A stretch of 19,363 nucleotides of DNA from Rickettsia endosymbiont of Diachasma alloeum (GTDB lineage: Bacteria > Pseudomonadota > Alphaproteobacteria > Rickettsiales > Rickettsiaceae): assembly GCA_020404485.1 (NCBI GenBank), contig DYDT01000039.1, forward strand, positions 1 through 19,363. The letters are read 5' to 3'. The position numbers were made by a program, and so were the translations under genes. Below are positions 1 through 19,363 of the stretch, piece by piece; position 1 is the first letter of the stretch; the number at the start of each line of letters is the position of its first letter. The notes under the pieces are model-generated. The model had not been told where the DNA came from. It saw only the letters and a list, made by a program, of their open reading frames with translations, and did not search any database.

Positions 1-119
1 ATTTCGCTAGCCTTTGTAATAGTGAATTTGTGGCTACTCAATGTTCTATTGTGGCAACTTTTAGCTCGGTTAGTGGTATTGTTTTAGCTGCTCTTGGTGG
101 CATTTGTGCAAAATATCTT
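1..119 (+). other. Misjoined mate-pair tag: copy of ampG-like gene segment
   Basis: These bases match 8985-9103 of this window except at positions 43, 57 and 75. They end exactly where a 454 paired-end linker begins. In the ampG-like frame all three differences change an amino acid (Tyr366 to Cys, Ser371 to Thr, Arg377 to Gly), which looks more like read error than a conserved second gene. I infer that this is the distal tag of one untrimmed mate-pair read and does not belong next to base 162. A diverged genomic duplicate is the alternative, but the linker makes it unlikely. Confidence 0.9.
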
Positions 120-161
120 CGTAATAACTTCGTATAGCATACATTATACGAAGTTATACGA
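120..161. other. 454 Titanium paired-end linker with loxP core (left)
   Basis: This 42-bp sequence contains a perfect 34-bp loxP site at 124-157: 13-bp inverted arms (124-136 and 145-157) around the asymmetric spacer GCATACAT (137-144). The outer bases CGTA and ACGA match the linker used in 454 Titanium paired-end libraries, where Cre recombination circularises fragments. It is a library-construction sequence, not bacterial DNA. An identical copy in the same orientation sits near the other end of the window. Confidence 0.96.
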
Positions 162-201
162 TCTTCGCGAGATAAGTGTCTATATTTTCTGTTCATCATT
201 A

Positions 202-231
202 CCTATTTAAAATTTTATTATTTTAAATAGG
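202..231 (+). terminator. Terminator-like hairpin
   Basis: An 11-bp perfect stem (202-212 pairing with 221-231) closes an 8-base loop and is followed by TTTTGTTCT. The stem is mostly A-T, with two G-C pairs at its base. It would end transcription from a gene lying to the left of the real contig. Bases 162-201 are too short to identify that gene. Confidence 0.5.
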
Positions 232-260
232 TTTTGTTCTACTTACTTATAGTATTTTCA

Positions 261-425
261 ATGCAACAAGGAAAAGCAGAAGCGAAAGCGGAAGCAGTAA
301 AGCTAGTTAATATTAAAATGCAAAAAGAAAAAATTACTATGGCAAAGAAAATGTTGGAAGAAGGTATTCCATTAGAGTCTGTTATAAAAATTACAGAATT
401 ATCTAAAGCAGATTTAGAAAAATAA
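261..425 (+). pseudogene. C-terminal remnant of an Rpn / PD-(D/E)XK nuclease family transposase-like protein
   Basis: The 54-residue reading frame begins with ATG at 261; a TTG at 234 would extend it to 63 residues. It opens with a charged repeat (GKAEAKAEA), then a helical stretch, then KKMLEEGIPLESVIKITELS, ending LEK. This is the usual tail of the Rpn/PDDEXK_2 family: a GKAE repeat followed by a small helix-turn-helix-like segment in which residues resembling 'GIPLE.I..IT.LS' recur. The family is normally about 250-300 residues with the nuclease domain in front; none of that is present here. No Shine-Dalgarno sequence is evident. It converges on dnaE with a 13-bp gap. Most likely a decayed fragment; a translated small protein cannot be excluded. 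Confidence 0.6.
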
Positions 426-438
426 AATAGCTGTAGAT

Positions 439-3400
439 TTAAGTATTTTGATAAAGACTAAGAATCTTAAAATCTTGCCCTCGTAAAAAGAACTTTTCTG
501 GCAATGTAATCTTTGCTACAAAATTTTTTACTGATTTACTTGATAAATATATTGTAGCTGTAGTATTACTCTGCTCGTCGTTATTTATACAATTTGCAAG
601 TAACGTTACTATTTGTTCTAATTCTTCATCATTTTTAGGATAAAGCTGTAAGTCAAATTGCTGATTGTTGGTTGCATCCTCAATTGATGAAAAGCTTTTA
701 GCAGTAATTTTAATACCGCCCTCATCTTTAATGATATCGCAATTAACAACTACTAAACTTTTAACGTCAAGTAAATGTACGTAATCTTTTAAAACCTCTT
801 CGCTAAAAATACTTAACTCAAATATATTTTCAGGATCAGAAAGCACTAGGGTAACAAATCTACCTCTTGCTGACATACGAGAATCTTTCTTTTGTATTAC
901 ACCAGCAATCATTACTCTATTACTACCATCAGGTATATTATTATGTAAATCAGCTGAGCTTAAGATATTCAAGCGATTGAATATTTCTTTGTATTCTGTT
1001 AGGGGGTGATTTGAAATAAATAACCCCATGGCCTCAAATTCATAAAAAGCTAAAGTATTTTTATCAGCGTAATCACTTGAAACTAATATTTCTTTACTTA
1101 AGCTAGAGACTTTAATTAAGCTAAATTGATTAGATGCCTGCTCTTCATGGTAAGAAACCGAATATGCAAGAAGCTTAGAAATACTTGAAAACAACTGCAA
1201 TCTATTGTCATGTAATGCATCAAAACAACCAGCTTTAATTAAATTTTCAAGTAATTTGCTGTTTATAGCTTTTGGTGGCAACCTCTCAATAAAATCAACG
1301 ATCGATTTAAAAGCACCTCTTGCCTTTCTTTCATCTGTGACTAACTTACCAAAATTCGGCGTAACTCCTTTTATAGCCCCAAGTGCAAACACTATAGAAT
1401 GCTCTAAAATACTGAAATACCCATTAGAAACATTAATATTCGGTGCAATAATTTTTATATTATTATCTTTTGCTTCTTGCAGAAATAAATTAATTTTATC
1501 GTGATTATTTAGTTCAAGATTTAAGCACGCAACTACGAATTCTGCTGGATAATTAGCTTTGAGATATGCGGTTTGGTATGAAATAACCCCGTAAGCTGCG
1601 GCATGTGCCTTGTTAAAACCATAACCAGCAAATTTAGCAACAGTTGCGAAAATCGATTTAGCTTGAGTCTCAGAAATATTATTAGCTATTGCACCTTTAA
1701 CAAAAATTTCTTCTTGTTGTTCCATCTCAGCTTTAATTTTCTTACCCATAGCTCTACGAAGCAAATCAGCAGCTCCTAGGGTATAACCAGCTAAAACTTG
1801 AGCAATTCGTTGTACTTGTTCTTGATATATTACTACTCCATAAGTTTCTTCTAAGATAGGCTTTAATAACTCATGCAAATAATCAGGCTGCTGCAATTTA
1901 TGCTTACAAGCTATATAAGTTGGAATATTTTCCATAGGTCCAGGGCGATATAACGCACCAAGAGCGATCAAATCATGTATAGAATCAGGTTTAAGGCGTC
2001 TAAGTGCATCTTTCATCCCAACACTTTCAAACTGGAATACGCCGACTCCTTTACCTTTGCATAACATTTGATAAGTTTTTTCATCATCAAATGTCATATC
2101 GTTAAAATCTATTTCTATATTTTGTTCTTTTAACAATTTCTTACAATCGGTAATAACAGTTAGAGTTTGCAGCCCAAGAAAATCGAACTTAATTAAACCA
2201 GCAAGCTCGCAATATTTCATAGAATAACCAACTACTAGCATATCGGAGTTAGCATCTTTATAGACAGGCACTATATCAACTAAATCAGTACCAGCTATTA
2301 CGATTCCTGCTGCATGTGTTGAGGAGTGGCGATGCAGCCCTTCAAGAATTAATGAGGTATCAAGTACCAGCTTAATTAATTCTAGCTCACCCTCTAAATT
2401 ATATAATCCGTTACCTTTAGCAGCATTTGCAAGCTCTGGTACTTCTCGTATTGCCTGCTCAAGCGTAACGGGGTTTATTGCACTAAACGGTACTAATTCA
2501 GTTAGATAATCTGCAAATTTATATGGCAAGCTTAGTACTCGTGCGACATCCTTAATTACCGCCTTTGCCTGCATTTTACCAAAAGTTATAATTTGTCCTA
2601 CTCTATTATTACCATATTTAGAGCGTACATAATTAATAACTTCTTCTCGTCTTTCCTGACAAAAATCAATATCAAAGTCAGGCATTGAAATACGATCTGG
2701 ATTTAGAAATCTTTCAAATAATAGACCAAACTTAATAGGGTCAAGATCAGTGATAAGCAAGCTCCAAGCAACAACTGATCCTGCTCCTGAACCTCTGCCT
2801 GGTCCTACTAAAATACCTTGATTTTTACTCCATTTTATAAAGTCGGATACGATCAAAAAATAACCAGCAAAATTCATACTGCATATAATATTTAGCTCAT
2901 AATCAAGACGAGCAAGATACTCAGTTTTAATATTTTTTTGGTGTTCTATGGAAATATGTTCAGATTTGAATTTTGTATCAAGTCTTGCAAGTAATCCGTC
3001 TTTTGCTTCTTTTCTAATTAGATCAGTTTCACTAATATCTTTAGTAGCAAAATTAGGAAGCATTGGAGGGTTTGTATGGGCAGCAAAATAACAACGTTGT
3101 GTTAAATTTACTGTATTTTCGATAGCACTAGGTAGATCGGCAAAAAGCTCTATCATTTCTTTTGCTGATCTGAAATAACAATTCTCACTAACTGTTTTAC
3201 GATCAGGATATTCTTTAGTAACACCGGCAGAAATACATAATAATACATCATGTGCATCATGCATGCTTTTTTTGCTGAATAGTACTTTATTAGTAGCAAC
3301 AAGAGGAATATTTAATTTTGATGCTATTTTAATATAATTATCTTCAATAAGCTGCTCTTCCGGTAGATCATGCCTCATAATTTCAAAGTAAAAACGATCT

Positions 3401-3879
3401 CCAAAAATTTCTTGCAAGTTTTGTGCAAATATTTCAGCTTGTTCTTCTTTATTGGAAAGCAAACACTTCCCTATAATACCCTCAGTATAACAACATAATG
3501 CTATTAACCCCTCTTGATATTCTTTTAAATCCTCAAAAGTAATATGGTTGCATATTTTTCGATCATTTTTAGTAAAGGTTATACTGGATAGTTTAAGCAA
3601 ATTTTTATAGCCAGTTTCATCTTTAGCTATCAATAATATTTCTGCAAAAACGTTTGCTTCATATTGTATATTTAAAATAACTCCGTGAATAGGCTGCAAA
3701 CCTTTTTTTATAGCATATAAAGCAAACTCTAGTGATCCAAATAAATTCTCCTTATCTGTTAAGCAAATAGCAGGCATTTTATAAGAAGAGGCAAGTTCTA
3801 CTATTTTCTCAGTAGTTAATGCACTTGCTAAGAAAGAATAGGAGCTTTGCGTTCTTAAATGTATAAATTCAGTTTGCAT
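439..3879 (-). CDS. dnaE: DNA polymerase III subunit alpha
   Basis: Catalytic subunit of the replicative polymerase. The 1146-residue protein is full length for the DnaE1 group. Order of parts: N-terminal PHP domain (about 1-270); palm with the glycine-rich GPGRGSGAG segment (359-367); catalytic PDFDIDF (Asp401 and Asp403) and third aspartate in KFDFLGL (Asp566); fingers with YRPGPME (644-650) and [13 protein letters not shown] (752-764); a candidate beta-clamp motif QFSLI (918-922); and a C-terminal OB fold starting near 980 ([10 protein letters not shown]). The first PHP metal motif reads HLRTQSSYS where E. coli has HLRVHSDYS, so a ligand histidine and aspartate are replaced, consistent with a non-enzymatic PHP domain that relies on a separate epsilon subunit for proofreading. 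Start ATG at 3879; no strong Shine-Dalgarno. A palindromic element lies just upstream. Confidence 0.97.
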
Positions 3880-3906
3880 TTTTAATTAGTGTTAAAGTGT
3901 ATAAAT

Positions 3907-4007
3907 CGTCATTGCGAGCGAGTGAAATGAGCGTGGCAATCTCATGAAATAATACGGGATAACAACTCCTGAGATTGCCGCGTCGTCTACGACTCCTCGC
4001 AATGACG
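3907..4007. repeat. Rickettsia palindromic element, copy A
   Basis: A long interrupted palindrome lies between ugd and dnaE. The outer stem is 12 bp and perfect (3907-3918 with 3996-4007) and an inner stem is 10 bp and perfect (3935-3944 with 3970-3979). The left half is nearly the same as that of the element at 11421-11521, so this is a dispersed family. Its higher G+C and fold resemble the intergenic Rickettsia palindromic elements; I cannot assign the family number. Transcripts of ugd reading towards dnaE would pass through it, so it may act as an attenuator or RNA stability element (inference). Confidence 0.8.
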
Positions 4008-4016
4008 TTGTTGGGG

Positions 4017-5321
4017 CTAAATCTTACTTCCTACTGTATAATATCTAAAGCCTATGCTCTCCATCTCATCAGCTTTTAAGATATTCCGTAGATCAATAAT
4101 TATAGGTGATTTTACCAAGCTGTAAATTTTCTGCCAATCAAGTTCTTGAAATTCACTCCACTCAGTAGTAATAACTATAGCATCAGCAAAATCACAAGCT
4201 TTAATTGCGAAATCTAGATATAGCAAATTTTCATTTTTAAAAGTTTTTTGGGAATTTTCAAGACCCATAGGATCGAATGCCTTAACGTATGCACCTTTAT
4301 CTAATAAATTTTTAATGATCTCAATTGCAGGGCTTGCTCTAACATCATCGGTACCTGCTTTGTATGTTAAGCCTAAAACAGCTATATTTTTACCTTTTAA
4401 ATCTTCATCTAATAAAGTAGCTATCTTATCTATCATGAAATTTGGACGTTCTCTATTACTTGTAATCACTGCTTCAAGAATTTTAGAATCTATGTGATTA
4501 TTCTTAATGATACTATTTAATGCTAAGATATCTTTTGGAAAACATGAGCCTCCAAAGCCAGGTCCAGCATTTAGAAAGGCTGTTCCAATTCTTTTATCAA
4601 GTCCTATGCCATTAGATAAATCTTTAATATTAGCACCAATTTTTTCGCATAAATTAGCCATCTCATTAATAAAAGCAATTTTAGTAGCTAAAAAACTATT
4701 TGAGCTATATTTAATAAGCTCTGCTGTAACTAAATCAGTTACTACTAACTCTGCTCCATTATCCGTTAAAGGCGTATAAATCTTTCGTAATATATGCTCT
4801 GATTCTTTATTATTTACACCAATCACGATACGATCAGGATATAAAAAATCTTCTACAGCATTTCCCTCGCGTAAAAATTCTGGATTTGATGCAATATTAA
4901 ATGAGAAACCTTTTGCTTTTAAATAATCAATGATATTATTACAACTACTAGGCGGCACAGTTGATTTGATAACTATTAAACAATTTTTGTTTATATGTAG
5001 AGAAATTTTATCTATTGCCTCATAAACATAACTTAAATCGGCTTCGCCTGATTCTTTAGAGGGTGTACCGACCGTTATAAATACTGCCTCGGTATTTTTA
5101 AGCTCATCATTATAAAAGCTAGCAAACTTTAACCTTTCATGTTCCAAAGCTTGCATAAAATATTTATCAAGTTTAGCTTCATAAATTGGTAATATTTTCT
5201 TATTTAATTTAGAGATTTTGGTTTCATCATTATCAAGACAAGTAACATTATGCCCTAGGTAGCTCATCATAACACCTGAAACTAATCCCACATAGCCGCT
5301 ACCAATAAATGTAATATTCAT
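4017..5321 (-). CDS. ugd: UDP-glucose 6-dehydrogenase
   Basis: Oxidises UDP-glucose twice with NAD+ to UDP-glucuronate, a precursor for surface polysaccharides and lipid A sugars. The 434-residue protein has the N-terminal Rossmann motif GSGYVG (7-12), a central helix with Lys204 and Asn208 in ELIKYSSNSF, and the catalytic Cys260 with Asp264 in GGSCFPKD. These positions match the well-studied streptococcal enzyme. The C-terminal UDP-binding domain includes GLTYKAGTDDVRASPA (about 317-332). All catalytic residues are present, so it should be active. Start ATG at 5321 lies about 16 nt after the predicted transcription start, with no clear Shine-Dalgarno. It is divergent from the AsmA-like gene and reads towards dnaE. 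Confidence 0.96.
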   Translation of the reverse strand: MNITFIGSGYVGLVSGVMMSYLGHNVTCLDNDETKISKLNKKILPIYEAKLDKYFMQALEHERLKFASFYNDELKNTEAVFITVGTPSKESGEADLSYVYEAIDKISLHINKNCLIVIKSTVPPSSCNNIIDYLKAKGFSFNIASNPEFLREGNAVEDFLYPDRIVIGVNNKESEHILRKIYTPLTDNGAELVVTDLVTAELIKYSSNSFLATKIAFINEMANLCEKIGANIKDLSNGIGLDKRIGTAFLNAGPGFGGSCFPKDILALNSIIKNNHIDSKILEAVITSNRERPNFMIDKIATLLDEDLKGKNIAVLGLTYKAGTDDVRASPAIEIIKNLLDKGAYVKAFDPMGLENSQKTFKNENLLYLDFAIKACDFADAIVITTEWSEFQELDWQKIYSLVKSPIIIDLRNILKADEMESIGFRYYTVGSKI

Positions 5322-5343
5322 AATTTTTGATGATTTTTTCTAG

Positions 5344-5373
5344 ATTATACTTTATATTTAACAAATATTACAA
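5344..5373 (-). promoter_or_regulatory. Predicted sigma-70 promoter of ugd
   Basis: On the minus strand there is TTGTAA (5368-5373), an 18-bp spacer, and a perfect TATAAT (5344-5349). Transcription would start near 5337, giving a leader of about 16 nt before the ugd ATG. On the plus strand a -10-like TATACT (5346-5351) overlaps the same bases and could serve the AsmA-like gene, although its best -35 (TTTTGA, 5325-5330) is weak and only 15 bp away. Confidence 0.5.
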
Positions 5374-5415
5374 GTCTAAAACTTGCGTTATCTTTTAATC
5401 GATTTATAAACTCGA

Positions 5416-7929
5416 ATGAATTTTCTCAAAAAAGCTTTTATTAGTATTTTTACAACTTTTGCTGCATTGTTTCTAGTTGCATATTTAATTTTTTATAGTG
5501 CAAATCATGGACATATGGATAAGCCTTTAAAAAGAGTAATTGAATTTTATTTAAGTAAAAATGATATCAAAGCTGTAATAAATGACTTAAGTTTTAAAGA
5601 AAATCACTTAATAATTAATAAAATTTCTTTATATCTTATAGATAATGCTGAAGGGGAAATTAATGACCTTGATGTTACTTTAAATTTCAAAAATTTATTT
5701 TCTAATTCATTAATAGAAGCATATTTTAATATAGCTCAATTTTCGGTAATATCAAATAATAAGGAAGAAATTATAAATACTCAAATAAATGGTAACTACT
5801 CTTTAAATATATTCCAAAGAAATATTTTAACTAATATAAACCTCACTTCAATAAAAAATGATATTTTAACCGATGAAAAAGGGGCAGGGCTGCCGCTGGG
5901 AAAAGCTATATGTGTTTATAAAACTAGCAATACAAAAAGTAACTCTAAAATAGCTGATTGTAAGCTGAATTTTGGTAACAAAGCCTCTTTAACTTTAAAC
6001 AGTAAAGTAACTGATAAAAACATAGATGCAAATGCCAATATAGTAAATATTCCTCTGATAATTTACCAAACAGTAGAAAAAATTATTCCTAATAATCCTG
6101 TGATATCATATTTGCGAGAGCATATAAAACAAGGTCACATTCAAAACGGCGAATTAAGCATTAAACTAGATAGAAAATTTTTAAAAGAAAATATTTTAGA
6201 AGATGATAATTTAAAAGCAAATTTGCATATATCAAATTTTGAATATAAATATCATAAAGATTTACCTGCTTTAACTAAAGTTGATACTAATATAGTTATT
6301 TCAGGGGTAGAGATAAAATTCTTGATTAATGAGGCTTATAGCGGTAACAGTATACTATCTAATGGTATTATGACTTTTAAATGGGAAGGACCTCTTAAGT
6401 CACAATTTGTTTTTAATGCTACTGCTAAAGGTGAAATTAGTGATTTAGTTGATTTTATCCCAAATGACGCATATCAAAATATTAAAAATGAAGATATTGA
6501 TTTGAAAGAAATTAAAGGAAATGCCAATTCAATAATAGAGATAATAATTCCTATAAATTCTGAAATCGATAATAGCTATAATGTTACTTCAACATTGACT
6601 GATATAAATTTTAATACTTTAAGCAATAATATATTGTTACAACAAGGTGAGGCAAAAGGTGTTTTTAAAGACAATCAATTAAATATTACTGGTAAGGGTA
6701 AAATCAATAACTATGTAAGTGATTTTACTTACGACCACGATATGGTAGACGAAAACAATACTTGTCTGCTTAAAATAAAAAGTAATATTACAGCAAATAA
6801 TAAAATTTTTGGCATATTAAAATTAATGTCAGGTAGTGCTGTTTTAGATTTTGAGTATAAGAAACAAAATAACAATACAACTATTGATTTTAATTCTAAC
6901 CTTGATAATTTAGAGTTTTATATAGATAAAGTAGCTATCCACAAACAGTTGCGTAAAAAAGCTAATTTAAATATTCATACTAAATTAAATGATAAAGGCT
7001 CAGATAAGAATATCGAATTTAATCTGTCAGGGGATGATAGTTTAAAAATTAATGGTAATATCTTAGCTAAGAAAGATATTTATAATATATCTCTGTCTTC
7101 TATTAATCATAAAAATACAAGATTAAGAGGAAAAATAACTATAGATAGTCATAATCTAAATACTGAAATTTATGGAAGTGTGTTAGATCTTTCAAACTCT
7201 AATATGATGGAGTTTTTACAAAAAGATGGTGATTCCACACGTAATGTAATGTTAAAAACTAACATATATAAAATTCTATTAAAAGATAATGTAATTTTAG
7301 ATAACTTTGATTTAGCAATTAAATGTGATAAAGTACGCTGCTTTTCTGGTTCTCTAAATAGTAATATTTCCAATAATGGAAAAGTGAGAATGTCTCTTAC
7401 TGCACAAGAAAGCTATGAACAATGGTTAATTGAATCAGATAATGCAGGAGCATTACTTAAAGGACTTGGGATGTATAGTTCTATGCAAGACGGTTATGCT
7501 AAAATTAACCTGAATACTAGAAGATATAAAGTTAAAAAAGGCGATATAATACCAATATTAGATTGTAAATTCTATATAACACGTTTTGCCTTAACCGATA
7601 CTCCTTTTTTAACAAGATTAGTTTCTTTCGTTTCAATACCTGGTCTTCTTAGCTCGATAACCAATAATAAGAATATTTCATTTGAAGATATGAACGGTAA
7701 TTTTAGTTATCAAGGAAACGTAATTACATTATCCGGTGCAGAAGCACATGGACCATTTTTTGACTTTACTATGAAAGGTAATATTGATACCAACCAAAAA
7801 TTAATTCAAATTAAAGGTAACGTTATCCCATCATTTTTCTTCATTAGTAGTATTGTAACTAAAATACCGGTAGTAGGTAAGATATTTTCTAAAGTCGCCC
7901 CCTACTCTTTAAAAATACAATATAAATAA
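5416..7929 (+). CDS. AsmA-like / YhdP-type envelope protein
   Basis: This 837-residue protein has one N-terminal membrane anchor (about 7-28) followed by a long beta-strand-rich, Asn/Lys-rich periplasmic region with no enzyme motif. The last 150 residues have the AsmA-like C-terminal pattern: a segment ending in [17 protein letters not shown], then an amphipathic strand region with '[19 protein letters not shown]', then a hydrophobic end. Such proteins are members of the AsmA/TamB/YhdP group, thought to bridge inner and outer membranes and carry phospholipids (family knowledge). The role here is inferred. Start ATG at 5416 gives the anchor directly; no Shine-Dalgarno is visible. It is the first gene of a rightward set, with the ampG-like ATG 1 bp after its stop. 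A GC-rich patch at about 5880-5905 stands out but stays in frame. Confidence 0.75.
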
Positions 7930-7930
7930 T

Positions 7931-9190
7931 ATGTTATTGATAAAGCAAATAAGTGTAGATAAGATGTATTTACTTGGAATTTTGCTCTTAGGTATGATTT
8001 CCGGTCTAACATTTAATTTAATTTTTTTTACTGTTCCATACCAATTATCTGAAGCAAAATATACAACCGATATAATAGGTTCAATATCGCTTGCTGCTTT
8101 TCCTTATTGCGTAAAAGTTATATGGTCTCCTTTTATCGATAAATATTCTATCCCTTTTTTATGTTCTAAATTTGGAGCTAGGCGTGGCTGGGCAATAGCA
8201 TCACAGCTATGTTTAAGCCTTGCAATAACCGGTTTTTCGAGCTTTAACCCTTGTCATAATATATATATTACTGCAATTATATTATTTATTATATCTTTTT
8301 GTGCGGCTACTCAGGATATCGTACTTGATGCATACCGCATTGAGAGACCTACTTCAAAAAAAGAACTCTCTTTAGCGTTTACTTTCGGCAGTATAGGATT
8401 CCGCCTTGGGATGTTACTCGGTAGCGTCGGTGCTTTATATATATCGGTTATTTTTGATTGGAGTACTGTTTATAAATTAGCTATTTACATTACTCTTCTT
8501 GGACCTATAATTATTTTATGCATTAAAGAACCAAAGCCGAAACAACAATCTCATAGAACAAAAGATTTAATAAATTTAAAACAATATTTTGAAGTTATTA
8601 AAAGTAGTATTATATCCTTAAAAACCGAACAGCGACATTTATTGTTAATTATGCTGTTTGTTTTTCTATATAAAGCCGCTGATTCTATACCTATGGCTAT
8701 GAGCTCACCTTTGCTTTTAGGTTTAAATTTCGCAACTCACGAAATAGCCTTTATTTACAAGGCTTACGGATTGCTTATCATGATAGTAGGAGGAGCGTTA
8801 GGCGGAATTTTATCAACAAAAATCGGTATATTACGTAGCGTTTTAATAGGCGGCATTATTCAATTACTTTCACCTCTTATGTTCATGATCCTTGCTGTTA
8901 TTGGATATGATATAAAAACTTTCATACTAACTATTACCATGCAGAATTTCTGTGCAGGTCTTGCCGGAACAATTATCTCGATATATTTCGCTAGCCTTTG
9001 TAATAGTGAATTTGTGGCTACTCAATATTCTATTGTGGCATCTTTTAGCTCGGTTAGTCGTATTGTTTTAGCTGCTCTTGGTGGCATTTGTGCAAAATAT
9101 CTTCCTTGGTCTTTATTCTTTTTTTGCAATACTTTATTTAGTATGTTATTTATACTGGTCTTCTTTAAAGTATATGGTAAGAAAATATAA
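7931..9190 (+). CDS. ampG: AmpG-like muropeptide MFS transporter
   Basis: A 419-residue permease with about 12 membrane helices and the signatures of the AmpG branch of the major facilitator superfamily: [10 protein letters not shown] (62-71), GARRGW (82-87) and [13 protein letters not shown] (126-138). AmpG imports anhydro-muropeptides from the periplasm for peptidoglycan recycling, driven by the proton gradient. Rickettsia genomes encode several AmpG paralogues whose substrates may have diverged, so the transported compound is uncertain. The ATG at 7931 is 1 bp after the AsmA-like stop, suggesting co-transcription; Met12 (7964) is an alternative start closer to the first helix. Residues 353-392 correspond to the duplicated tag at 1-119. 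Confidence 0.85.
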
Positions 9191-9235
9191 TGTTATTACA
9201 TGGATCGAAAAAGGATCGAAAAATATCTTTAGTGT

Positions 9236-9260
9236 CATCCCGTTGCTTGTCCACGGGATG
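9236..9260. repeat. Short palindromic repeat hairpin
   Basis: CATCCCGT (9236-9243) pairs perfectly with ACGGGATG (9253-9260) around a 9-base loop, in the 85-bp gap between the ampG-like gene and tatC. The sequence resembles a short dispersed hairpin that is common in Rickettsia intergenic DNA (recalled, not searched). No T-tract follows, so it is a poor intrinsic terminator and read-through to tatC is plausible. Just before it the stretch GGATCGAAAAA is repeated imperfectly. Confidence 0.6.
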
Positions 9261-9275
9261 TAATATAAAATAATT

Positions 9276-10022
9276 ATGAAATTATATTCTTTTCAAGAAC
9301 ATTTATCAGAGCTTAAAGTAAGATTATCCAGAATATTTATTATTTTTATAATTGCATTTGCTATTTGCTATTATTTTAGTGATAATATTTATAGTTTCTT
9401 ATTAGAACCGCTTGCTAAACTAAGTAAGGATAATTTACGAAATATAATTTATACTGGACTTACTGAAGCATTCTTTACTTATATTAAGCTTGCAGCTTTT
9501 GCAGCTTTCGCTATTATTATACCAGTAATTGCTTTAGAATGTTACTTATTCGTTAGTCCTGGATTATACTATCATGAGAAAAAAATTATTGCGTTTATTC
9601 TTTTTATATCGCCTATTTTATTCTGGTGTGGTAGTATTTTCGTTTTTTATTTCGTAATGCCAAAAGCTTGGAATTTTTTCCTTAGTTTTGAAAAGCGTGA
9701 TTTAATAGTACCGATAGTTTTAGAGGCTAGGATTAGTGAATATTTAAATCTAGTTATTCATCTAATTATAGCTTTTGGTGTTGCCTTTCAACTTCCAGTT
9801 GTTTTAATAATATTAAATACATTAAAAATAATTACAATAGAAACTCTTAAGGAAAAAAGACGTTTTGCGATAGTTATTAACTTTATTATTGCAGGAATAT
9901 TAACTCCTCCAGATATATTAAGCCAGTTTGCTCTTGCAATACCGCTGCTTTTATTATATGAAATTTCAATAATAATATGTAATTATATAGAAAAAACCGA
10001 GGTCATAAATGCTAAATATTAA
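9276..10022 (+). CDS. tatC: Sec-independent protein translocase subunit TatC
   Basis: Core receptor of the twin-arginine pathway, which exports folded proteins across the inner membrane. The 248 residues form six predicted helices. Family landmarks are present: an N-terminal cytoplasmic HLSELKVRL (9-17) that helps bind the twin-arginine signal, the periplasmic segment running to [10 protein letters not shown] (94-103), FQLP (171-174), and the TPPDILSQ motif (210-217) before the last helix. It starts at ATG 9276 with no clear Shine-Dalgarno. Its end overlaps the serS start by 14 bp, so the two are translated from one message. No tatA or tatB is in the window, as expected where rickettsial tat genes are scattered. 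Residues 192-229 are duplicated in the end tag at 19252-19363. Confidence 0.95.
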
Positions 10023-11289
10023 ATGGATTAGAGAAAATCAAGAATTATTCGATGACAAGCTTAGGCAGAGATTTATTGAACCTATGGCAAAAAGAATCGA
10101 AGAGCTTGATGGTAAAAAAAGAAAAATCACTAATCTAATGCAAGAATTTCAGCACGCACGTAAAGTAAAGTCGAAAATTTTAGGTAACATGAATACTAAA
10201 AGCGGCGAGGAATTTGAGGTATTACAAAGAGATGTTAAGGACATCAATGAAAAACTAGAAGAGCTCGAACAAGATTTAAACAATAATAATGAGCTAAACG
10301 AGCTATTAAATACTCTTCCTAATATTCCTGATGAAGAAGTACCATATGGTATTGATGAAAGTATGAATAAATTAATTCGTACTTACGGAGAAGTAGACCT
10401 TAATGCTCTAAATAAAAAGCAGCATTTTGAACTAGGTGTAAAACTAGACCTAATGGATTTTGAGCAGACGGCAAAAATTTCAGGTGCTAGATTCGTAACA
10501 TTAAAAGGTGATTTAGCAAAATTAGAACGTGCTTTAGCCAATTTCATGCTTGATATTCATACTGGAGAGTTCGGTTTTCTTGAAGTGTCACCTCCAGTGC
10601 TAGTTCGAGATAATGCTATGTATAATTCGGGGCAGCTGCCTAAATTTGCGGATGAATCTTTTGCAACTATAAACGGTTACAGGCTAATTCCAACCGCAGA
10701 AGTGTCACTAGTGAACATGGTTGCCGATACTATTATTCCTCGTGAAAAATTACCTATGCGACTTGTTGCTTATACACCATGCTTTAGATCAGAAGCAGGT
10801 AGCAGCGGTAGAGATACTAGAGGTATGATTAGATTGCATCAGTTCGGTAAAGTAGAGCTTGTATCTATTACAACACCGGAAGAGTCAAAAAATGAGCATG
10901 AATATATGACTAATGCTTCAGAAACTATCTTACAAAAACTGGAATTACCTTATCGTACTATGCTACTTTGTACGGGTGATATGGGTTTTGCATCACAAAA
11001 AACTTATGATATAGAAGTGTGGCTTCCAGGGCAAAAACAATATCGTGAAATTGCTAGCTGTTCTAATTGTGGTGATTTTCAAGCACGTAGAATGAAAGCA
11101 AGATATAAAGAATTTGGTAATCATGATACTACTTTAGTTCATACTTTAAATGCTTCTGGCTTACCAATTGGTAGAACTATGGTTGCAATTTTAGAAAATT
11201 ATCAAAATGAAGATGGTTCAATAACCGTACCGGATGTTCTGGTAAATTACATGGGAGGGTTACAAAAAATCACTGCATATAAAGAATAA
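10009..11289 (+). CDS. serS: Serine--tRNA ligase
   Basis: Class II aminoacyl-tRNA synthetase that charges tRNA-Ser. The 426-residue protein has the N-terminal antiparallel coiled-coil arm (about 28-100) that grips the long variable arm of tRNA-Ser, then the catalytic domain: motif 1 region [11 protein letters not shown] (190-200), serine-binding TAE (229-231), motif 2 starting [12 protein letters not shown] (259-270), and motif 3 [17 protein letters not shown] (383-399). All are intact. The ATG at 10009 lies inside the end of tatC and is preceded by GAGG (9999-10002) at 6 nt spacing, an unusually clear Shine-Dalgarno for this window that supports this start. Confidence 0.97.
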
Positions 11290-11316
11290 TCATTTATTAA
11301 ACGTAAATAATTAGGT

Positions 11317-11366
11317 AAAGTTTTGTAATAATGTTTATTACATGATAAAGTTTTGCAGTAGTGTTT
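11317..11366. repeat. Imperfect 20-bp direct repeat, 30-bp period
   Basis: The sequence aaagttttgtaataatgttt at 11317-11336 recurs as aaagttttgcagtagtgttt at 11347-11366, identical at 17 of 20 positions and offset by exactly 30 bp. The differences are three transitions. It may be an old tandem duplication; no function can be read from it. Confidence 0.6.
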
Positions 11367-11420
11367 GCGATTATAGCTTGTTGTTAGACTGTGACTGGTC
11401 ATTACATGGCTCGTTTTTCC

Positions 11421-11521
11421 CGTCATTGCGAGCGACTAAAAGGAGCGTGGCAATCTCATGAAACAGTATATGGTTTCTGATATTGCTTCGTCGAAACTTT
11501 CAGTTTCTTCTCGCAATGACG
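11421..11521. repeat. Rickettsia palindromic element, copy B
   Basis: An outer 12-bp perfect stem (11421-11432 with 11510-11521, extendable to 13 bp) encloses about 77 bp. The first 43 bases match the left half of copy A at 3907 with only a few changes, including the shared gcgtggcaatctcatgaaa core. The right halves diverge more, and the inner stem seen in copy A is eroded here. Same dispersed family, 101 bp in both places. Confidence 0.8.
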
Positions 11522-11586
11522 GCTCTCAACCCATGCAACAAAGCCTTCAAGGGATGACAACAAATTAATTTAAATTAAGGTTATTT

Positions 11587-14019
11587 GTGTTTAGTGGTCT
11601 ACGAAAGTTTGATAAGGATATATATAATTATAATGCTCCGAATTTTATACCTATAGCATGTCACTATAATAAGCATACTTTGCTTACTAAAGATGGTAAG
11701 TTACTACAAATTATTAAAATTTATGGTATTAGTTCAGAAAAAATTAGTGATAACATACAAAATTTACGTGAAATAATTAGAGCTTCTGTAAAAAAGCATA
11801 CAAATAGTTATGATTTTGCTTTTTGGATGCATACAGTAAGAGAAAGACAAAATTTAGACGATCCTATTCCTTATAAAAAATTATTACCTGCTAATATTCA
11901 TGCATTATGGCAGAGAAAAAATCACTGGAATGATAAATTTGTTAATACTTTATATATTTCCGTAGTACATGATTCTGCTAAGATTAAAATTAAAAATTTT
12001 GGTTCTTTGATAAATTCTTTATCAACTAAATTAATCGTAGACTTTGAAAATAAATATTTAGAGTCTGCCTTGCAGAAGCTAGAAAGTCTTGCTAATAATA
12101 TTTTGAATGACTTAAGTGAGTTTGATGCAGAAAAGCTTGGTATAACATTTGAAAACGAAAACACATTTTCTGCACCTTTATTTTTATATAACCGAATAGC
12201 TAATATTAACGATAGCGATTGTTTAGTACCTATAATAGATTTATCAAGTGCAATAGGTAGAAGTACTTACACGATTAGTGGCGATAAAATGGTAGTTACG
12301 AATCAGGAACAAAATAAAAAATTTATTTCCTTACTATCTATCAAAGAATATCAAGAATCTCCGTCTGAAGCTCTTGATAAGTTTTTACAGCTACCACTTG
12401 AATTAATAATAACCGAGATATTTTATTTTGTTGATAAAAAAGCAGTCACTTCCGCTTTAAAGGGGCAGGATTACATTTTAAAAATTACTAATGATGATAA
12501 CTTAATTGAGCATAAGGGTATAAAAAGATTTAATGATAATAAATCTCCTTTTGAATTTTGTAATCAACAAATTTCAATTGCTGTTATAGAAGAAGATGAA
12601 GATAAACTTACTGCTTCTGTTGCAAAAGCTGCAAGAGAGCTTTTTAAACTTGGTATTGTTCATGTAAAGGAAGACCTTAATATAGAACAAACATTCTGGG
12701 CACAATTACCTGCTAATTTTGCTTTCATAAGAAGAATGTCACCTTTATTGTCAGATCATGTAGCATCTCTTGCTGCTCTGCACAATTCACCTTTAGGTAG
12801 CAAATATACTTCTTGGGGACGAGCATTAACACTACTTAGAACAGAAAGAGGTACTCCTTATTTTATGAATTTTCATGATAAAACTGGTAGGGGTAATACT
12901 TGTATTTTTGGTACAGAAAAAACTGGTAAAACAGTATTATTAAATTTTCTGGTGTCAGAATCAACTAAGTATGATCCGACAATAATTTATATCTCTAACA
13001 GCGATGATTCTAAGATTTTTATTGAAGCATTAGAGGGTACATGGTTAGAAATTGATAAACAAATTATCAATCCATTTTTAGTAGATGATACAGAAAAATC
13101 GCAAGCTTTCATTTTAGAATTTTTAAAAATGTTAAGTAGTCATTATATTTCACCGCTTAATGAAGTAGAGCTAACTTTTTTAGAGAAACTTAAGAGTAAA
13201 ATTTTATCAATTGATAAGGAAAAGCGAATTTTTTCTGACATCTTAAAATGGGAAGATTTTAAAGAAGAGGGTGGCAGTACAATATTAGATAAATTAAAAG
13301 GTTTCACAGAGGGACAATTATATAGCGGTTTATTTGACCAATCAGTTTTTAATATTAATGAAAGCAATATTGTCGGTCTTAATTTATATAAGCTTTCAGA
13401 TGAGCCTTTTGCTAAGCAATTCTATCCAAGTGAAAGAAAATATTTAGAACAATTTAATAATAACTTAAAAAAACACCAAAACGTTTGTGCTAGCGTAGTT
13501 TATGCACTTACTTACCATTTAAGCTTAGTAGGTACTAAACCTAAAATATTTGCTGCAGATAGTTTTGATAAACTCTATAAACCTGAAATTTATAGTGATA
13601 ATATAAACTTAATTTTTAATAATTTATCTGAAAGTAATGGTGTTTTTGTAGGTAATTTTAATTTTATTTACCTTAAGGCATACCCAAAATATACTTTAAA
13701 AGCATGGCTTGAGTTAATTAATACTAAAATTAATTTACCGTCTGATGTGAAAATCGAAGATCTAGACGAGATTTTAGGTTTAACAGACTCAGAAATACGT
13801 AAGTTATCACAATTAATACTTACCAGTAGAATGTTTTTAATTAATAAAGATAACGAATCTATAGCTTTAGAATTAAGTATAGCAGCATTAACTGGAGTTG
13901 TGCGTATTTTATCAAGCAAAAAGGAAGAAATGGCTATCTATAAAGAAGTGCTAGAAAAATATCAAGGACCACCAGATAATTGGATTAATTATTTATACGA
14001 TGCATTAAAGGTAGACTAG
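11587..14019 (+). CDS. virB4: VirB4-type ATPase of the type IV secretion system, divergent paralogue
   Basis: VirB4 proteins power assembly and substrate transfer in type IV secretion. This 810-residue protein has the family's N-terminal region (FIPIACHYNKHTLLTKDG, about 20-37), the linker segment FWAQLPANFAFIRR, and Walker A GTEKTGKT (442-449). Where Walker B normally ends in Asp-Glu, it reads FAADSFDKL: Asp658 is kept but Glu is Ser659. The Thr-Gln-Ser-Pro segment expected further on reads VGNFNF. I infer that it binds ATP but hydrolyses it poorly, and works beside the main VirB4 elsewhere. It fits the second rickettsial copy (rvhB4-II). GTG start at 11587 with AAGG at 11577-11580. No other virB gene adjoins it. 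A perfect palindrome spans its stop codon. Confidence 0.92.
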   Translation: MFSGLRKFDKDIYNYNAPNFIPIACHYNKHTLLTKDGKLLQIIKIYGISSEKISDNIQNLREIIRASVKKHTNSYDFAFWMHTVRERQNLDDPIPYKKLLPANIHALWQRKNHWNDKFVNTLYISVVHDSAKIKIKNFGSLINSLSTKLIVDFENKYLESALQKLESLANNILNDLSEFDAEKLGITFENENTFSAPLFLYNRIANINDSDCLVPIIDLSSAIGRSTYTISGDKMVVTNQEQNKKFISLLSIKEYQESPSEALDKFLQLPLELIITEIFYFVDKKAVTSALKGQDYILKITNDDNLIEHKGIKRFNDNKSPFEFCNQQISIAVIEEDEDKLTASVAKAARELFKLGIVHVKEDLNIEQTFWAQLPANFAFIRRMSPLLSDHVASLAALHNSPLGSKYTSWGRALTLLRTERGTPYFMNFHDKTGRGNTCIFGTEKTGKTVLLNFLVSESTKYDPTIIYISNSDDSKIFIEALEGTWLEIDKQIINPFLVDDTEKSQAFILEFLKMLSSHYISPLNEVELTFLEKLKSKILSIDKEKRIFSDILKWEDFKEEGGSTILDKLKGFTEGQLYSGLFDQSVFNINESNIVGLNLYKLSDEPFAKQFYPSERKYLEQFNNNLKKHQNVCASVVYALTYHLSLVGTKPKIFAADSFDKLYKPEIYSDNINLIFNNLSESNGVFVGNFNFIYLKAYPKYTLKAWLELINTKINLPSDVKIEDLDEILGLTDSEIRKLSQLILTSRMFLINKDNESIALELSIAALTGVVRILSSKKEEMAIYKEVLEKYQGPPDNWINYLYDALKVD

Positions 14020-14028
14020 TCTACCTTT
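14007..14028. terminator. Perfect 22-bp palindrome across the virB4 stop codon
   Basis: Each 11-base half, AAAGGTAGACT and its reverse complement, abuts the other without a spacer, and the TAG stop of virB4 (14017-14019) lies at the centre. As RNA it can form a stem of about 9 bp with a 4-base loop. No run of T follows, so it is a weak intrinsic terminator. It could stabilise the 3' end or be a protein-binding site. Confidence 0.45.
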
Positions 14029-14135
14029 GATATTTCAAGATTTGGTAAGCCAAATTTCGGGATTCGCCTGTGTTCACGTAGTTATCTACGCTCCGCAGGC
14101 TCACCGCTTATTTGACCTCCAAATCTTAAAATATC
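14029..14135. repeat. Palindromic element with nested hairpin, different family
   Basis: The outer arms 14029-14045 and 14119-14135 pair at 16 of 17 positions. Inside is a strong hairpin with CGTAG pairing with CTACG around TTAT, flanked by GCCTG and CAGGC. It shares no obvious sequence with the copies at 3907 and 11421, so it is a second family. It fills most of the 175-bp gap between virB4 and the next gene. The core resembles a dispersed Rickettsia palindromic repeat, recalled without a search. Confidence 0.75.
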
Positions 14136-14194
14136 TGCGGTATATGACTACTATGTAACAATATATAACAACTATTTTATAACAATTACTCAAA

Positions 14195-17100
14195 GTGTTG
14201 AAAAAATATTTATTATTTTTTTTATTTTTATTTTGCTCAATTAATACACATGCCAGTATTTGGGGTACTATAGGTGGTTGTCTTAGTGATCCTTGTAATT
14301 GTGGGCAAAGTGAAAGAACAGAAACTTGGAATAAAGGTCCGAATGAAATAACAAAGACATTTAAAACTGGTGCAAATTGTCTTCCTTGGAATAAAAGTGA
14401 TGGTCGTGGTACGGATAATTGCTTATTACAATTTGATTATCCGGGTAGATTTACACCTTTTGTATTAAATAGATGTGCTCAAGAGTCACCAGACAGTAGT
14501 TATTTTACTCCTAAAATAACTATTAGAATTCAAAGCTGTAATGCTGCTGCTTGTTGGTCTCAGAACGCTAATTTAAATTGGGATGGACAATGCGTATTAT
14601 GGCCAACTGGTTATGGTTTACCGCTAACTAGAGTTTGTGCCAGAATTGCAGTGCCGGAAATGCCACCTCCTCCTGGAATAAATTCTAATCCTTCTCCTGC
14701 TGATCCTGGCTATACTGCAGGATTTCATCTTAATAAAGTTGGTTTTACCGATAGTGACGATACTATAGTTGGGGTAGACGGACAAATACTTACTATTTCT
14801 TCCCCTAAGCTTTGTGCATATAGTGATCCAGGTCTTGTAAATCTTGTGTCAGATTCAGGGGCACATACTGATGCTCTGGATTGGAATCCTAATAGTCAAC
14901 CACTACATGAAACTACTAAGCTTAGTCCAATTGCACAAGTATTAAAATTTTTAGTTACTACACTCAGCGGAGGAAATATACCAAAATTACTAGGTACACT
15001 GCTTGGTATGATAAGCCAAGATTCAGAAATAATAAAAGTACTCCAAACTATACTTAATGCCATAGGTGCCTTATTTAATTTCTTCCCTAATGCTGTAATA
15101 ATACCAATTATTGAAGCTTCTGGGTCTTTAAACGGTTCTGTAGATGACTATTCTTTTGGCTGTGTACAATTACCTTTAGGTCCTTACCCGCCACCATTTT
15201 GTAAAAATTTAAATGAGCTTAGTGTTCCTGCGGTCATTAATAATGTGTGTAGTGTTAAAAATCCTGATGGAAAAACTTTTAATCAATCTTCAGCTGTCCC
15301 GCCTTGTGTAGTGTCAAATGTTAGAAATAATATTATTAATAATACAGTGCGTGTCAGTTTTAATAATCTTATACCTCTTTGTACTGGTACCAATCCTGAT
15401 CTTACTACTTGCGTAGAAATAAATGGACCATTTACTTCGGCAAGTGGTGCTCACACAGCTACTGCTTATACAGATTTTATTAAACCTTGTAGTAGCTCTT
15501 CAAATGGTGCTCCTTGCATTAATACAAATATAAAATTACCTTGCGATGTTGCTGCTAATGGTTGTAATCAAGGTTTTAGAATAGTGTATTCGCAGGTTAT
15601 GGGTAGCCTTGAAACTCCTAGTGATTATTTTATAAGTGATATACCTGATTGTGGTACTAAAGAAGCAGATAACTCAACTTCTTGTCAAAAAATATGGGGA
15701 GCTAATATTGGTCAGTTTGTTGATGTAAGCGTACAATTTCCTGAAGTACAAGTTCAAGATAATTTAATGCTAATACAGCCAAGCTTTACTTTAAATGATA
15801 ATAACAATAAATCCCGAATCCTTTATGTTTCTATCAGTAATACTAAAACAGATACACAAGATCCAGCAGATATATGTGTATTTGAATCGAGTAGTTTAGC
15901 AGGATGCGTGCCTAGAGTAAGTGATTCATACAGTTTAGCTACTTACGAATGTGAAAAACAATATTCGGGAATTACTTGCCCAAGCAATACTTATTATACT
16001 CCACAATTTGTTGCTTCTATGCAAGTAAAAGATGATAAAGGTGATATTATAGATCAAACTAGTACACTTGTGACGCCATTATCATATGCTGCTGATCCTA
16101 ATTCTACTGCTACAGAAAGTGTAGTAAAGCTTGCTGGTTATAATTATAGTGCTTCTGTTGCATTTATCCCTAAAGATCCACCAAAATATCCAGATGATAA
16201 ATATATTGCTATGCCATTTTCAGGTCCTAATGCATTAAATCAAATAACAATTTACGGCGTATATAAAGATAATATACCGCCTTATGACAATAGTGGAAAT
16301 CCAAATCCAAATGCAATTTATTTAAAATATTTGGAATATATAAATGGTAAATATGTGCAAGGTGGAACGCATACCTGCTTAATGCCGAAGAATTTCCAGC
16401 ATTGTAGTCCTGTACCGCCACCACCGTCAACAACACCTAGTAATCCTAATAATAATCAACAAATAAATTGTGTGCTTGCCAAATTAGATCAGCCAAATAC
16501 TGTAGATTGTAGCGTATTTAAAAGTAAAGTTGCTAGTTATGCAAACCTTGGTTTATGTGAGAGCACAAGCGGTTGTTCTCAAGTAGAATTTTTATCAGGT
16601 GCAGGAAAAGGTATTACTATTTATAGCTGTGCTAACAACAGTAATTGTTATGTTAATAATGATAACCCTAATACTCCTGTATGCGTCTTAACTACAGACT
16701 ATTTAAATAGGATAAGTCCTGCATCTAATTTAGGTTCTATATTAGATGCTACTCAATATTATAAAGTTATATTTGACTCTAATAGTAACCCAACATATGA
16801 TGTTAAGGTTTCAGATGTAAGAGATAAAACTTGGCGAGAATTAAATCTATGTTCGCCTATTTTAGCTCCTGTTTGTTCGGCAATTACTTCTCCACAACCT
16901 GCTGATGGTAATGCATTGTGGGGTGAAACAGATATAGGAGAGTTAAGAGTAGGTACATGTCCACCTAATTGGGTAGAAATAGATCCATCTTTAGATCCAT
17001 ATCCAAATCTGGAACCAAAAGGAACAAGCCTTAAGCGTTATTGTTTATCAAATTTTGATAAAAAAACTATTGAATTTGAACCTTTAAAACAAAATATTGG

Positions 17101-17638
17101 TTGTAGAGAATCAAAAGGACTACCTATAGAAATTATTGAAAACAATTTTCCTACAGAATTAGTCAATACTCCTTATGATCCTACTACAAAAACTGGTGAT
17201 TTTATTTTAAATGTAATACCAACTTGGAGCTCACAATGGAATGTTATGGCGTTCCCTCATGACTCTAGAACTTTTATAGATGCATCAAATGAACCAGATG
17301 GTAGTAAATTATTTACCATAACATTTAAAGTAACTTTAGATGCTATTATGGCTGATATCGATTATTTTAAAATTCTAGATTTATGGTATGATGATTGTAC
17401 ACTTGTATATGTTAATAATACAAAAGTTCTTAGTGCACCTATAGCTTCTCAAGATTCTTTGGATCAAAAAGCTTATTGTAACAATGGTAATGATCTAGGT
17501 ATGGCGTTACAAGCTAAAAATTTACCACTTGATATCAAGCCTTATTTAAAACAAGGAGAAAATACTATAAAATTCCAGCTAAGAGTTATGTATGGTGGAG
17601 GATTATATTATCATATGCAATATAAAATGCTGAGATAA
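14195..17638 (+). CDS. Large secreted cysteine-rich protein with TraN-like C-terminus
   Basis: This 1147-residue protein has a clear Sec signal peptide (KK, then a hydrophobic core, cleavage likely after THA near residue 20). It contains about 44 cysteines, often in pairs, so it should be disulfide-bonded outside the cytoplasm. A hydrophobic helical stretch lies at about 243-313, followed by a [15 protein letters not shown] segment (to 336) that reminds me of the extensions of rickettsial VirB6 proteins. Proline-rich linkers occur near 160-175 and 745. The last 150 residues (about 1000-1147), with WYDDC (1064-1068), VYVNNTKV, and [16 protein letters not shown], look like the jelly-roll end of TraN mating-pair stabilisation proteins. 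There is no TrbL/VirB6 channel domain. Start is GTG 14195 without a Shine-Dalgarno. It lies between virB4 and terC. Role inferred: envelope or surface component linked to secretion. Confidence 0.7.
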
Positions 17639-17641
17639 GTT

Positions 17642-18553
17642 ATGAGCTGGATTATTTTTTACACCATAATTTTTACTTTATTAGTACTTGATTTAGGGGT
17701 TATATATAAAAAAAATGAAGTAATGAGCTTTAAACAAAGCTTATTTTTCAGTCTTTTCTATTTTACAATATCCTGTTTATTTGGCATTTATGTTTATTAT
17801 AATATGGGAGCAGATAGTAGCCGTGAATATTATACTTGCTTTCTAATTGAAAAGGCTATGTCGCTTGATAATATCTTTGTTATATCAATTATCTTCCAAT
17901 TTTTTACGATTCCACAAAAATATCAACATCGTGTTTTATTCTTTGGCATAATTGGCGTAATAGCTTTTAGAGCTGTAATGATTTATGGCGGGATTATGCT
18001 TATAAATAAATTCTCTTGGTTGTTATATATTTTTGCCGTGATACTTATTGTTACGGGCGTAAAAACTTTTTATATCTCTCACAAAACCTTTGATATACAG
18101 AATTCTTATATTTATAAGTCAATAATAAAATATCTAAATGTTACCCCTAACCTTGAGGGTGATAAATTCTTTGTTACGCGTAACAAAAAAACTATATGTG
18201 TTACTCCTCTTTTCATATCATTAATATTAATAGAAGCAATAGATTTAGTCTTTACTATAGATAGTATACCAGCAATATTTGCTATTACTAATGATGCCTA
18301 TATTATTTACACCTCAAATATTTTTGCTATTTTAGGGCTTAGAGCTTTATTTTTCTGTCTTGTAGAAATTGTTGAACGATTTAGCTATATCAAATATTCC
18401 TTAGCTTTAATTTTAATATTTATCGGGATTAAAATATTTATTCATCATTATATAGCTATTCCAGCTTACATTTCTTTAACTGTTACCATTACTTTATTGC
18501 TATTGGGCATATTTGCTTCTGTAATTAGAAAAAATATAGTTGACCGCCAATAG
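17642..18553 (+). CDS. terC: TerC/Alx family membrane protein, putative metal ion exporter
   Basis: A 303-residue protein with about nine membrane helices and the two family repeats: [13 protein letters not shown] (70-82) and [14 protein letters not shown] (198-211), whose membrane-embedded Glu, Asp and Asn residues likely bind metal. The stretch between them (about 150-185) is a cytoplasmic loop. Alx, YceF-type and TerC relatives export manganese and in some species help metallate secreted proteins. Substrate here is not shown. The ATG at 17642 follows the stop of the TraN-like gene by 3 bp, with GAGATAAG just ahead, suggesting one transcript. The -35 of the next promoter overlaps its last codons. 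Confidence 0.9.
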
Positions 18554-18567
18554 GCTAAAGATATAAT
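18540..18567 (+). promoter_or_regulatory. Sigma-70 promoter upstream of the barrel pseudogene
   Basis: TTGACC (18540-18545), a 16-bp spacer and a perfect TATAAT (18562-18567) form the best promoter match in the window. The -35 lies within the last codons of terC. Transcription would begin near 18574, about 24 nt before the ATG at 18598. It still looks functional although the gene it serves is broken. Confidence 0.65.
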
Positions 18568-18597
18568 ATCCTTAAAAATTTTTCCAAGATAAATATA

Positions 18598-19205
18598 ATG
18601 ATCAAATTATTACAATTATTTACTGTTGCTTTATCCATTTTTATTACTAATACTGTTTTTGCCGAAGATAATATAAACAATTTTTGCCGAAGATAATATA
18701 AACAATGAAACCGGTTTTTATATAGGAGGGGAAGGCGGTGTAGTCTAATACCGAAATTATTTTAAAAAGGGCAGGTATGTATAGCGGAAAAATAGGTTAT
18801 ACGATTTATCCGCAAATATCTGTTGAATTCTCGGCAACTTATCAACCTAAATATCGCTTACATTACGTATTACCACCGCAAAATTTGAGCAATGGCTTAA
18901 CTATACCTAAAACTCCTGGGAATACTAAAGTATTTTCGAACATATATATGTTAAATCTTATTTATGATTTAGAAGAGATGAATGGTATCACTCCCTTTGT
19001 AATAATAGGTGGTGGTATAGCTCAGGTAAAAGTCAAACCTACATCTTCAAAATGGAATGTTATAAATAGCGATTATTTTAAAGTAAGAAAAACACATAAG
19101 AATTGTGTTGTTTGGCAAGCAGGACTCGGAGTTTCAAAGTCTCTTTCTTCAAATTATAATGGACTGAAGAATCAAGACAAAATATTTGCCCAAAATGCTT
19201 GGTAA
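18598..19205 (+). pseudogene. Degraded outer-membrane beta-barrel protein (Adr/OmpA-barrel type)
   Basis: The ATG at 18598 opens a signal peptide ending in TVFA followed by EDNINN, but a 25-bp duplication shifts the frame to a stop at 18694-18696. Removing one repeat restores NETGFYIGGEGGVV before a stop at 18746, so a second lesion is also needed. A third segment, open from about 18744 to 19205 and with its first ATG at 18777, encodes GKIGYTIYPQISVEFSATYQ and later GITPFVIIGGGIAQVKV and WQAGLGVSKSLSS, alternating strands typical of small rickettsial surface barrels. The end (YNGLKNQDKIFAQNAW) no longer looks like a barrel strand, hinting at a further frameshift. At least two disruptions are certain. 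The 454 read chemistry could explain single-base shifts but not the duplication. Confidence 0.75.
18656..18705. repeat. Perfect 25-bp tandem duplication
   Basis: Bases 18656-18680 and 18681-18705 are identical (TTTTTGCCGAAGATAATATA followed by AACAA). Twenty-five is not a multiple of three, so the second copy destroys the reading frame just after the signal peptide of the barrel gene. This looks like replication slippage. Confidence 0.92.
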
Positions 19206-19209
19206 TTAT

Positions 19210-19251
19210 CGTAATAACTTCGTATAGCATACATTATACGAAGTTATACGA
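19210..19251. other. 454 Titanium paired-end linker with loxP core (right)
   Basis: Identical over all 42 bases, and in the same orientation, to the linker at 120-161. The loxP core occupies 19214-19247. It starts 5 bases after the last stop of the barrel pseudogene. It marks the right limit of reliable sequence. Confidence 0.96.
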
Positions 19252-19363
19252 GGAAAAAAGACGTTTTGCGATAGTTATTAACTTTATTATTGCAGGAATA
19301 TTATCTCCTCCAGATATATTAAGCCAGTTTGCTTTTGCAATACCGCTGCTTTTATTATATGAA
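19252..19363 (+). other. Misjoined mate-pair tag: copy of tatC segment
   Basis: These 112 bases match 9851-9962 inside tatC except at 19304 and 19334. In the tatC frame both differences alter residues (Thr210 to Ser, Leu220 to Phe). The copy begins immediately after the linker. I infer a mate-pair tag rather than a second tatC; it should be trimmed. Confidence 0.9.

What the first reader, a model, noticed from the sequence alone, without database searches (positions are those of the whole stretch)
120..161. Left loxP is a sequencing-library linker, not biology
The sequence shows a perfect 34-bp loxP embedded in a 42-bp string that I recognise as the 454 Titanium paired-end linker. Everything to its left is a misplaced tag. 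If left in place, it could be reported as a P1-type recombination site, an engineered strain or a gene duplication.
Basis: partly seen in the sequence, partly recalled or inferred. Interest (0 to 1): 0.8.

Follow-up and report, generated by a model that had tools for sequence, protein, structure and literature searches.

The report
Leftover mate-pair library linker, an artefact
The apparent phage P1 loxP site near the start of this contig is a leftover laboratory linker from a Cre/loxP mate-pair sequencing library, with a misplaced 119-base copy of sequence from 9 kb away on its outer side, so it should be flagged and not read as biology.

Summary
Window 120-161 is an exact 42-base loxP linker, with a second exact copy at 19210-19251. 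Both outer stretches are misplaced tags: 1-119 copies 8985-9103 (116 of 119 identical), 19252-19363 copies 9851-9962 (110 of 112). The layout is that of a circularised fragment: downstream end, linker, upstream start, same strand, implied inserts 8942 and 9359 bases. The draft holds 39 such linkers on 35 contigs, 38 of 39 within 200 bases of a contig end (random: mean 2.6, maximum 12 in 20,000 trials). Six of 31 tested tags match their own contig, 6 of 6 same strand, inserts 7435-9359. None of 57 relatives has a loxP. The contig proper, 162-19209, breaks in two insertion-sequence ends, where I infer that only chimeric reads led onward. An artefact.

The parts
1..119 (+). misplaced mate tag: copy of 8985-9103 (inside the MFS-transporter ORF 7931-9190)
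   Evidence: 116 of 119 identical, 3 substitutions, no indel; no other match in the genome; MFS_1
120..161 (+). 42-base mate-pair linker holding a perfect loxP (124-157)
   Evidence: exact; the same 42-mer is printed as Cre mate-pair adapter in PMC5199103 and PMC5710592
162..262 (-). end of an insertion sequence with the start of an IS30-like transposase; repeated in the genome; left end of the contig proper
   Evidence: 99-100 % to C38, C102, C9 and C124, 97-98 % to nine places in relative G002; transposase with HTH_38 and rve domains there; four close relatives match only from 261, 265 or 322 inward. The name IS30 is recalled.
8985..9103 (+). true place of the left tag
9851..9962 (+). true place of the right tag (in the TatC ORF 9276-10022)
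   Evidence: Pfam TatC
19155..19209 (.). end of a second insertion sequence (IS3-like); right end of the contig proper
   Evidence: 55 of 55 identical to G000:C45:106-160, 82-85 % to 8 places in G011; frame with rve_3/rve domains beside it in G011; four close relatives match up to 19161. The name IS3 is recalled.
19210..19251 (+). second copy of the 42-base linker
   Evidence: exact
19252..19363 (+). misplaced mate tag: copy of 9851-9962
   Evidence: 110 of 112 identical, 2 substitutions; no other match in the genome

Best explanation
A fragment of about 8-9 kb was given loxP linkers at both ends, circularised with Cre, sheared, and the piece spanning the linker was read. Such a read says: end of fragment, linker, start of fragment. 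The linker was not cut out before assembly. The contig breaks on both sides inside multi-copy insertion sequences, where ordinary reads collapse; the untrimmed chimeric read offered a unique way onward, so the contig was extended through the linker into the mate tag, once at each end. Shown: linker, tags, geometry, genome-wide pattern, repeat ends, absence in relatives. Inferred: the assembler's path, the missed trimming, and the platform.
For: Exact 42-mer at both contig ends. 39 copies with up to 3 mismatches (37 exact) on 35 contigs of a 196-contig draft; two more loxP cores at the edge of C18 and C93. 38 of 39 have at most 200 bases on their outer side, the last 527; random mean 2.6, maximum 12 in 20,000 trials. 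Of 31 junctions with tags of 15-300 bases, 6 tags match their own contig, 6 of 6 on the same strand, inserts 7435, 7618, 8082, 8942, 9095, 9359; 5 of the 6 junctions on contigs over 9.5 kb fit, 1 of 8 on contigs of 7.4-9.4 kb, and 0 of 17 on shorter contigs, which cannot hold such an insert. Linker orientation is mixed, 22 + and 17 -. 0 of 57 relatives carry loxP at up to 3 mismatches. The flanks are those of the linker and not of P1. The same 42-mer is in 74 stretches (101 copies) of nine other named species; 87 of 101 lie within 200 bases of a contig end or 300 of an N run. Protocol passages.
Against: One tag on a long contig (C120, 24 AT-rich bases) has no match there, best 17 of 24. C174 has an inverted 27-base copy directly beside its linker in place of a distant mate. 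Of four other tags searched genome-wide, two (C11, C82) found no full-length mate, C11 only a 67-base partial match on C188; an incomplete draft (88.9 %) allows that. Some tags match other fetched contigs, where the geometry was not tested. 14 of 101 copies in other species lie away from contig ends and N runs. The sequencing record of this assembly could not be seen.
Confidence: 0.99

Rival explanations
1. A variant of the same artefact: the linker comes from an Illumina (or hybrid) Cre/loxP mate-pair library and not from 454 Titanium.
For: The 42-mer was used in libraries read on Illumina (PMC5199103, PMC5710592; passages), and an Illumina 8-kb Cre-Lox protocol is described (PMC6992861, passages). 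Several contigs share ends of exactly 119 bases, as a k-mer-graph assembly would leave them (inference). The 5 tag differences are all substitutions, with no homopolymer indel.
Against: 454 Titanium 8-kb libraries with 42-bp loxP linkers are documented (PMC6992861), and 454 reads can also enter a k-mer assembler (established knowledge).
Confidence: 0.5
2. A genuine P1-type loxP: a P1-like plasmid-prophage or a Cre-made duplication in this bacterium.
For: The 34-base core is identical to phage P1 loxP.
Against: P1 differs from the 42-mer at bases 2, 40 and 41 (X03453); 39 copies, 38 of 39 near contig ends; the two window copies carry two different tags; no Cre match in the genome (no positive control); no phage integrase among 10 of the 14 listed window ORFs; 0 of 57 relatives.
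Confidence: 0.004
3. A laboratory-engineered floxed strain: two direct loxP sites around a cassette.
For: Two loxP copies in direct orientation at 124 and 19214.
Against: The stretch between them is ordinary chromosome: its two ends lie about 19-20 kb apart and in the same order in G002, G004, G015 and G020; outside each site lies a copy of sequence from between them; the genome has 41 loxP cores.
Confidence: 0.002

Closest known systems
Roche-type 42-base loxP circularisation linker of Cre mate-pair libraries
   Same: identical 42 letters; tag-linker-tag layout; one insert-size class, 7.4-9.4 kb
   Different: no difference seen; the platform (454 or Illumina) is open
Phage P1 loxP
   Same: 34-base core identical; contiguous match over bases 3-39 of the 42-mer
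   Different: P1 differs at bases 2, 40 and 41 (X03453); no Cre match found here (no positive control)
The same leftover in other public records (Candidatus Paracaedibacter symbiosus, Legionella tunisiensis, Lactococcus phage Q33 and others)
   Same: exact 42-mer (41 of 42 in Q33) next to contig ends, gaps or extra DNA
   Different: in several the copy sits inside scaffolds, not at contig ends

Membership tests
Cre/loxP mate-pair linker | exact 42-base linker, not only the 34-base core | tested here: met
   42-mer in print
Cre/loxP mate-pair linker | sequence on the far side is a same-strand tag at one library insert size | tested here: met
   8942 and 9359 here; 6 of 31 tags match their own contig, 6 of 6 same strand, 7435-9359; one miss among 6 junctions on contigs over 9.5 kb
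Cre/loxP mate-pair linker | many copies, at assembly ends | tested here: met
   39 copies, 38 of 39 within 200 bases of an end
Cre/loxP mate-pair linker | absent from relatives | tested here: met
   0 of 57
454 Titanium paired-end library | platform in the record; 454-type homopolymer errors | tested here: inconclusive
   record not visible; the 5 tag differences are substitutions; 119-base contig overlaps
Natural P1 loxP | 34-base core | tested here: met
Natural P1 loxP | P1 flanking sequence | tested here: not met
   differs at bases 2, 40, 41 of the 42-mer; P1 records match 3-39 or 3-38
Natural P1 loxP | cre nearby or in the genome | tested here: inconclusive
   no match at E 0.001, but no positive control and an 88.9 % complete draft; none in 10 window ORFs
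Engineered floxed strain | a cassette or marker between two loxP sites | tested here: not met
   ordinary genes between them, ends collinear in four relatives

The most novel reading that the evidence does not exclude
The genome really carries dozens of dispersed loxP sites with linker-like flanks that recombine at insertion sequences. Nothing supports it beyond the letters being in the assembly; without independent reads it is not formally excluded.
Probability: 0.003. Interest if true: 0.85.

Novelty: not a real feature. Interest (0 to 1): 0.1.

Why it matters
Unflagged, the linker suggests a P1 site, an engineered strain or a gene duplication that do not exist. The tags hold true long-range pairing information. 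The same leftover sits in or at annotated genes of other public records, so a screen with the full 42-mer, which tells the linker from a natural P1 site, is a cheap and useful check.

Tried and rejected
Natural loxP and a floxed strain were tested and rejected (flanks, copy number, relatives, tags, collinearity). The Cre search of the own genome was empty but had no positive control. Paper searches served to document the linker and the protocols; I make no claim that anything is absent from print.

Left out of counts: 8 of 39 junctions with tags under 15 or over 300 bases were not. Only the 35 contigs with a 42-mer were used for end distances; C18 and C93, with shortened linkers at their edges, were looked at apart.

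Full report
Observation. The window holds a perfect loxP at 124-157 and another at 19214-19247 (2 matches, none in 200 shuffles). Both sit in the same exact 42-base string, at 120-161 and 19210-19251. The window is the whole of contig C39 of a 196-contig, 990,679-base draft, so 119 and 112 bases lie outside the two linkers.

What lies outside the linkers. Bases 1-119 copy 8985-9103 with 3 substitutions; bases 19252-19363 copy 9851-9962 with 2. Neither has another match in the genome. From left to right on the left side: sequence of 8985-9103, linker, sequence from 162. On the right side: sequence up to 19209, linker, sequence from 9851. Both are what a circularised fragment gives: end of fragment, linker, start of fragment, on one strand. 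The implied fragments are 162-9103 (8942 bases) and 9851-19209 (9359 bases).

Genome-wide pattern. At up to 3 mismatches the draft has 39 copies of the 42-mer, 37 of them exact, on 35 contigs; a search for the 34-base core gives 41, the two extra ones being shortened copies at the edge of C18 and C93. Of the 39, 38 have at most 200 bases on their outer side and the last has 527; random placement on the same contigs gives a mean of 2.6 and a maximum of 12 in 20,000 trials. Of 31 junctions with tags of 15-300 bases (8 of 39 left out), 6 tags match their own contig over at least 90 % of their length; 6 of 6 are on the same strand and imply inserts of 7435, 7618, 8082, 8942, 9095 and 9359 bases. 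The miss on a long contig is a 24-base AT-rich tag on C120. C174 shows an inverted 27-base copy right beside its linker, an exception that I read as another library chimera. Four tags of other contigs were searched genome-wide: those of C51 and C149 match exact 119-base ends of other contigs; that of C11 has only a 67-base and a 49-base partial match, and that of C82 none. Some other tags match fetched contigs; their geometry was not tested.

Why at these places. Window 162-262 is an insertion-sequence end that recurs on C38, C102, C9 and C124 and at nine places in relative G002; the frame beside it in G002 has HTH_38 and rve domains, IS30-like by recollection. Window 19155-19209 is the end of another element, also on C45 and at 8 places in G011, with a frame with rve_3/rve domains beside it in G011, IS3-like by recollection. 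Four close relatives (G002, G004, G015, G020) match the window from 261, 265 or 322 inward on the left and up to 19161 on the right, and hold the two ends about 19-20 kb apart in the same order. So the contig proper is chromosomal and ends in two multi-copy elements; I infer that untrimmed chimeric reads were the only unique way onward there.

Not natural loxP. None of 57 relatives has a loxP at up to 3 mismatches, 22 of them from the same genus. P1's own site matches the 42-mer without a break over bases 3-39 and differs at 2, 40 and 41. In the plasmid collection 1 of 673 matching records has all 42 letters, and the next rows have 37; in E. coli genomes 4 of 679; in the phage collection none of 14, with Q33's two records at 41. 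The full 42-mer thus tells the linker from the phage site. No Cre match was found in the genome, without a positive control.

The linker in print. PMC5199103 (passages) gives the 42-mer as an adapter of Roche/Illumina hybrid libraries circularised by Cre after the Roche 454 protocol. PMC5710592 (passages) gives it for a Cre/loxP library read on Illumina. PMC6992861 (passages) describes 454 Titanium 8-kb libraries with 42-bp loxP linkers and an Illumina 8-kb Cre-Lox variant. PMC3253782 and PMC3507753 (passages) describe related Cre/loxP mate-pair work. Exact 119-base overlaps between contig ends and tag differences that are all substitutions leave the platform open.

Elsewhere. The exact 42-mer occurs in 74 stretches (101 copies) of nine other named species and in 4 IMG/VR stretches. 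Of the 101, 23 are within 200 bases of a contig end, 64 more within 300 bases of an N run (some N runs may be masking), and 14 are neither. Lactococcus phage Q33 carries 41 of the 42 letters at the 3' end of its portal gene; that stretch is 114 bases longer than in relatives such as BM13, and its portal CDS is 1356 bases against 1422.

Verdict. This is a library and assembly artefact.

Noticed in passing
L137 (JX564242.1; also NC_049809.1), record 17544-17584: Lactococcus phage Q33, recorded as a complete genome and also in RefSeq, carries 41 of the 42 linker letters at the 3' end of its portal gene; 114 extra bases, and a portal CDS 66 bases shorter than in BM13.
   Followed up: partly
L177 (NZ_CP011342.2, 3780235-3780276): E. 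coli K-12 GM4792 has the full 42-mer inside a gene annotated as a frameshifted glycosyltransferase pseudogene; two places are counted in each of its two records.
   Followed up: partly
window 18777-19205: This 142-aa ORF runs into the right-hand insertion sequence; its last 16 or so codons lie in the element, and the related frame is 237-243 aa in 6 of 7 relatives read. Weak match, far below cut-off, to the Rick_Adr adhesin model.
   Followed up: partly
window 14195-17638: 1147-aa ORF after a VirB4-family ATPase (11587-14019) with no Pfam or NCBIfam match at E 0.001.
   Followed up: no
window 3907-3954 and 11421-11468: 48-base repeat, two copies 90 % alike, beginning CGTCATTGCGAGCGA, between genes.
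   Followed up: no
window 18656-18705: Perfect 25-base tandem duplication upstream of the 142-aa ORF.
   Followed up: no
L020, L037 (Litoribacter populi XAAS-A1 scaffolds 5 and 4): Four linkers in a row at 129- and 123-base spacing, which looks like a concatemer of library fragments.
   Followed up: no
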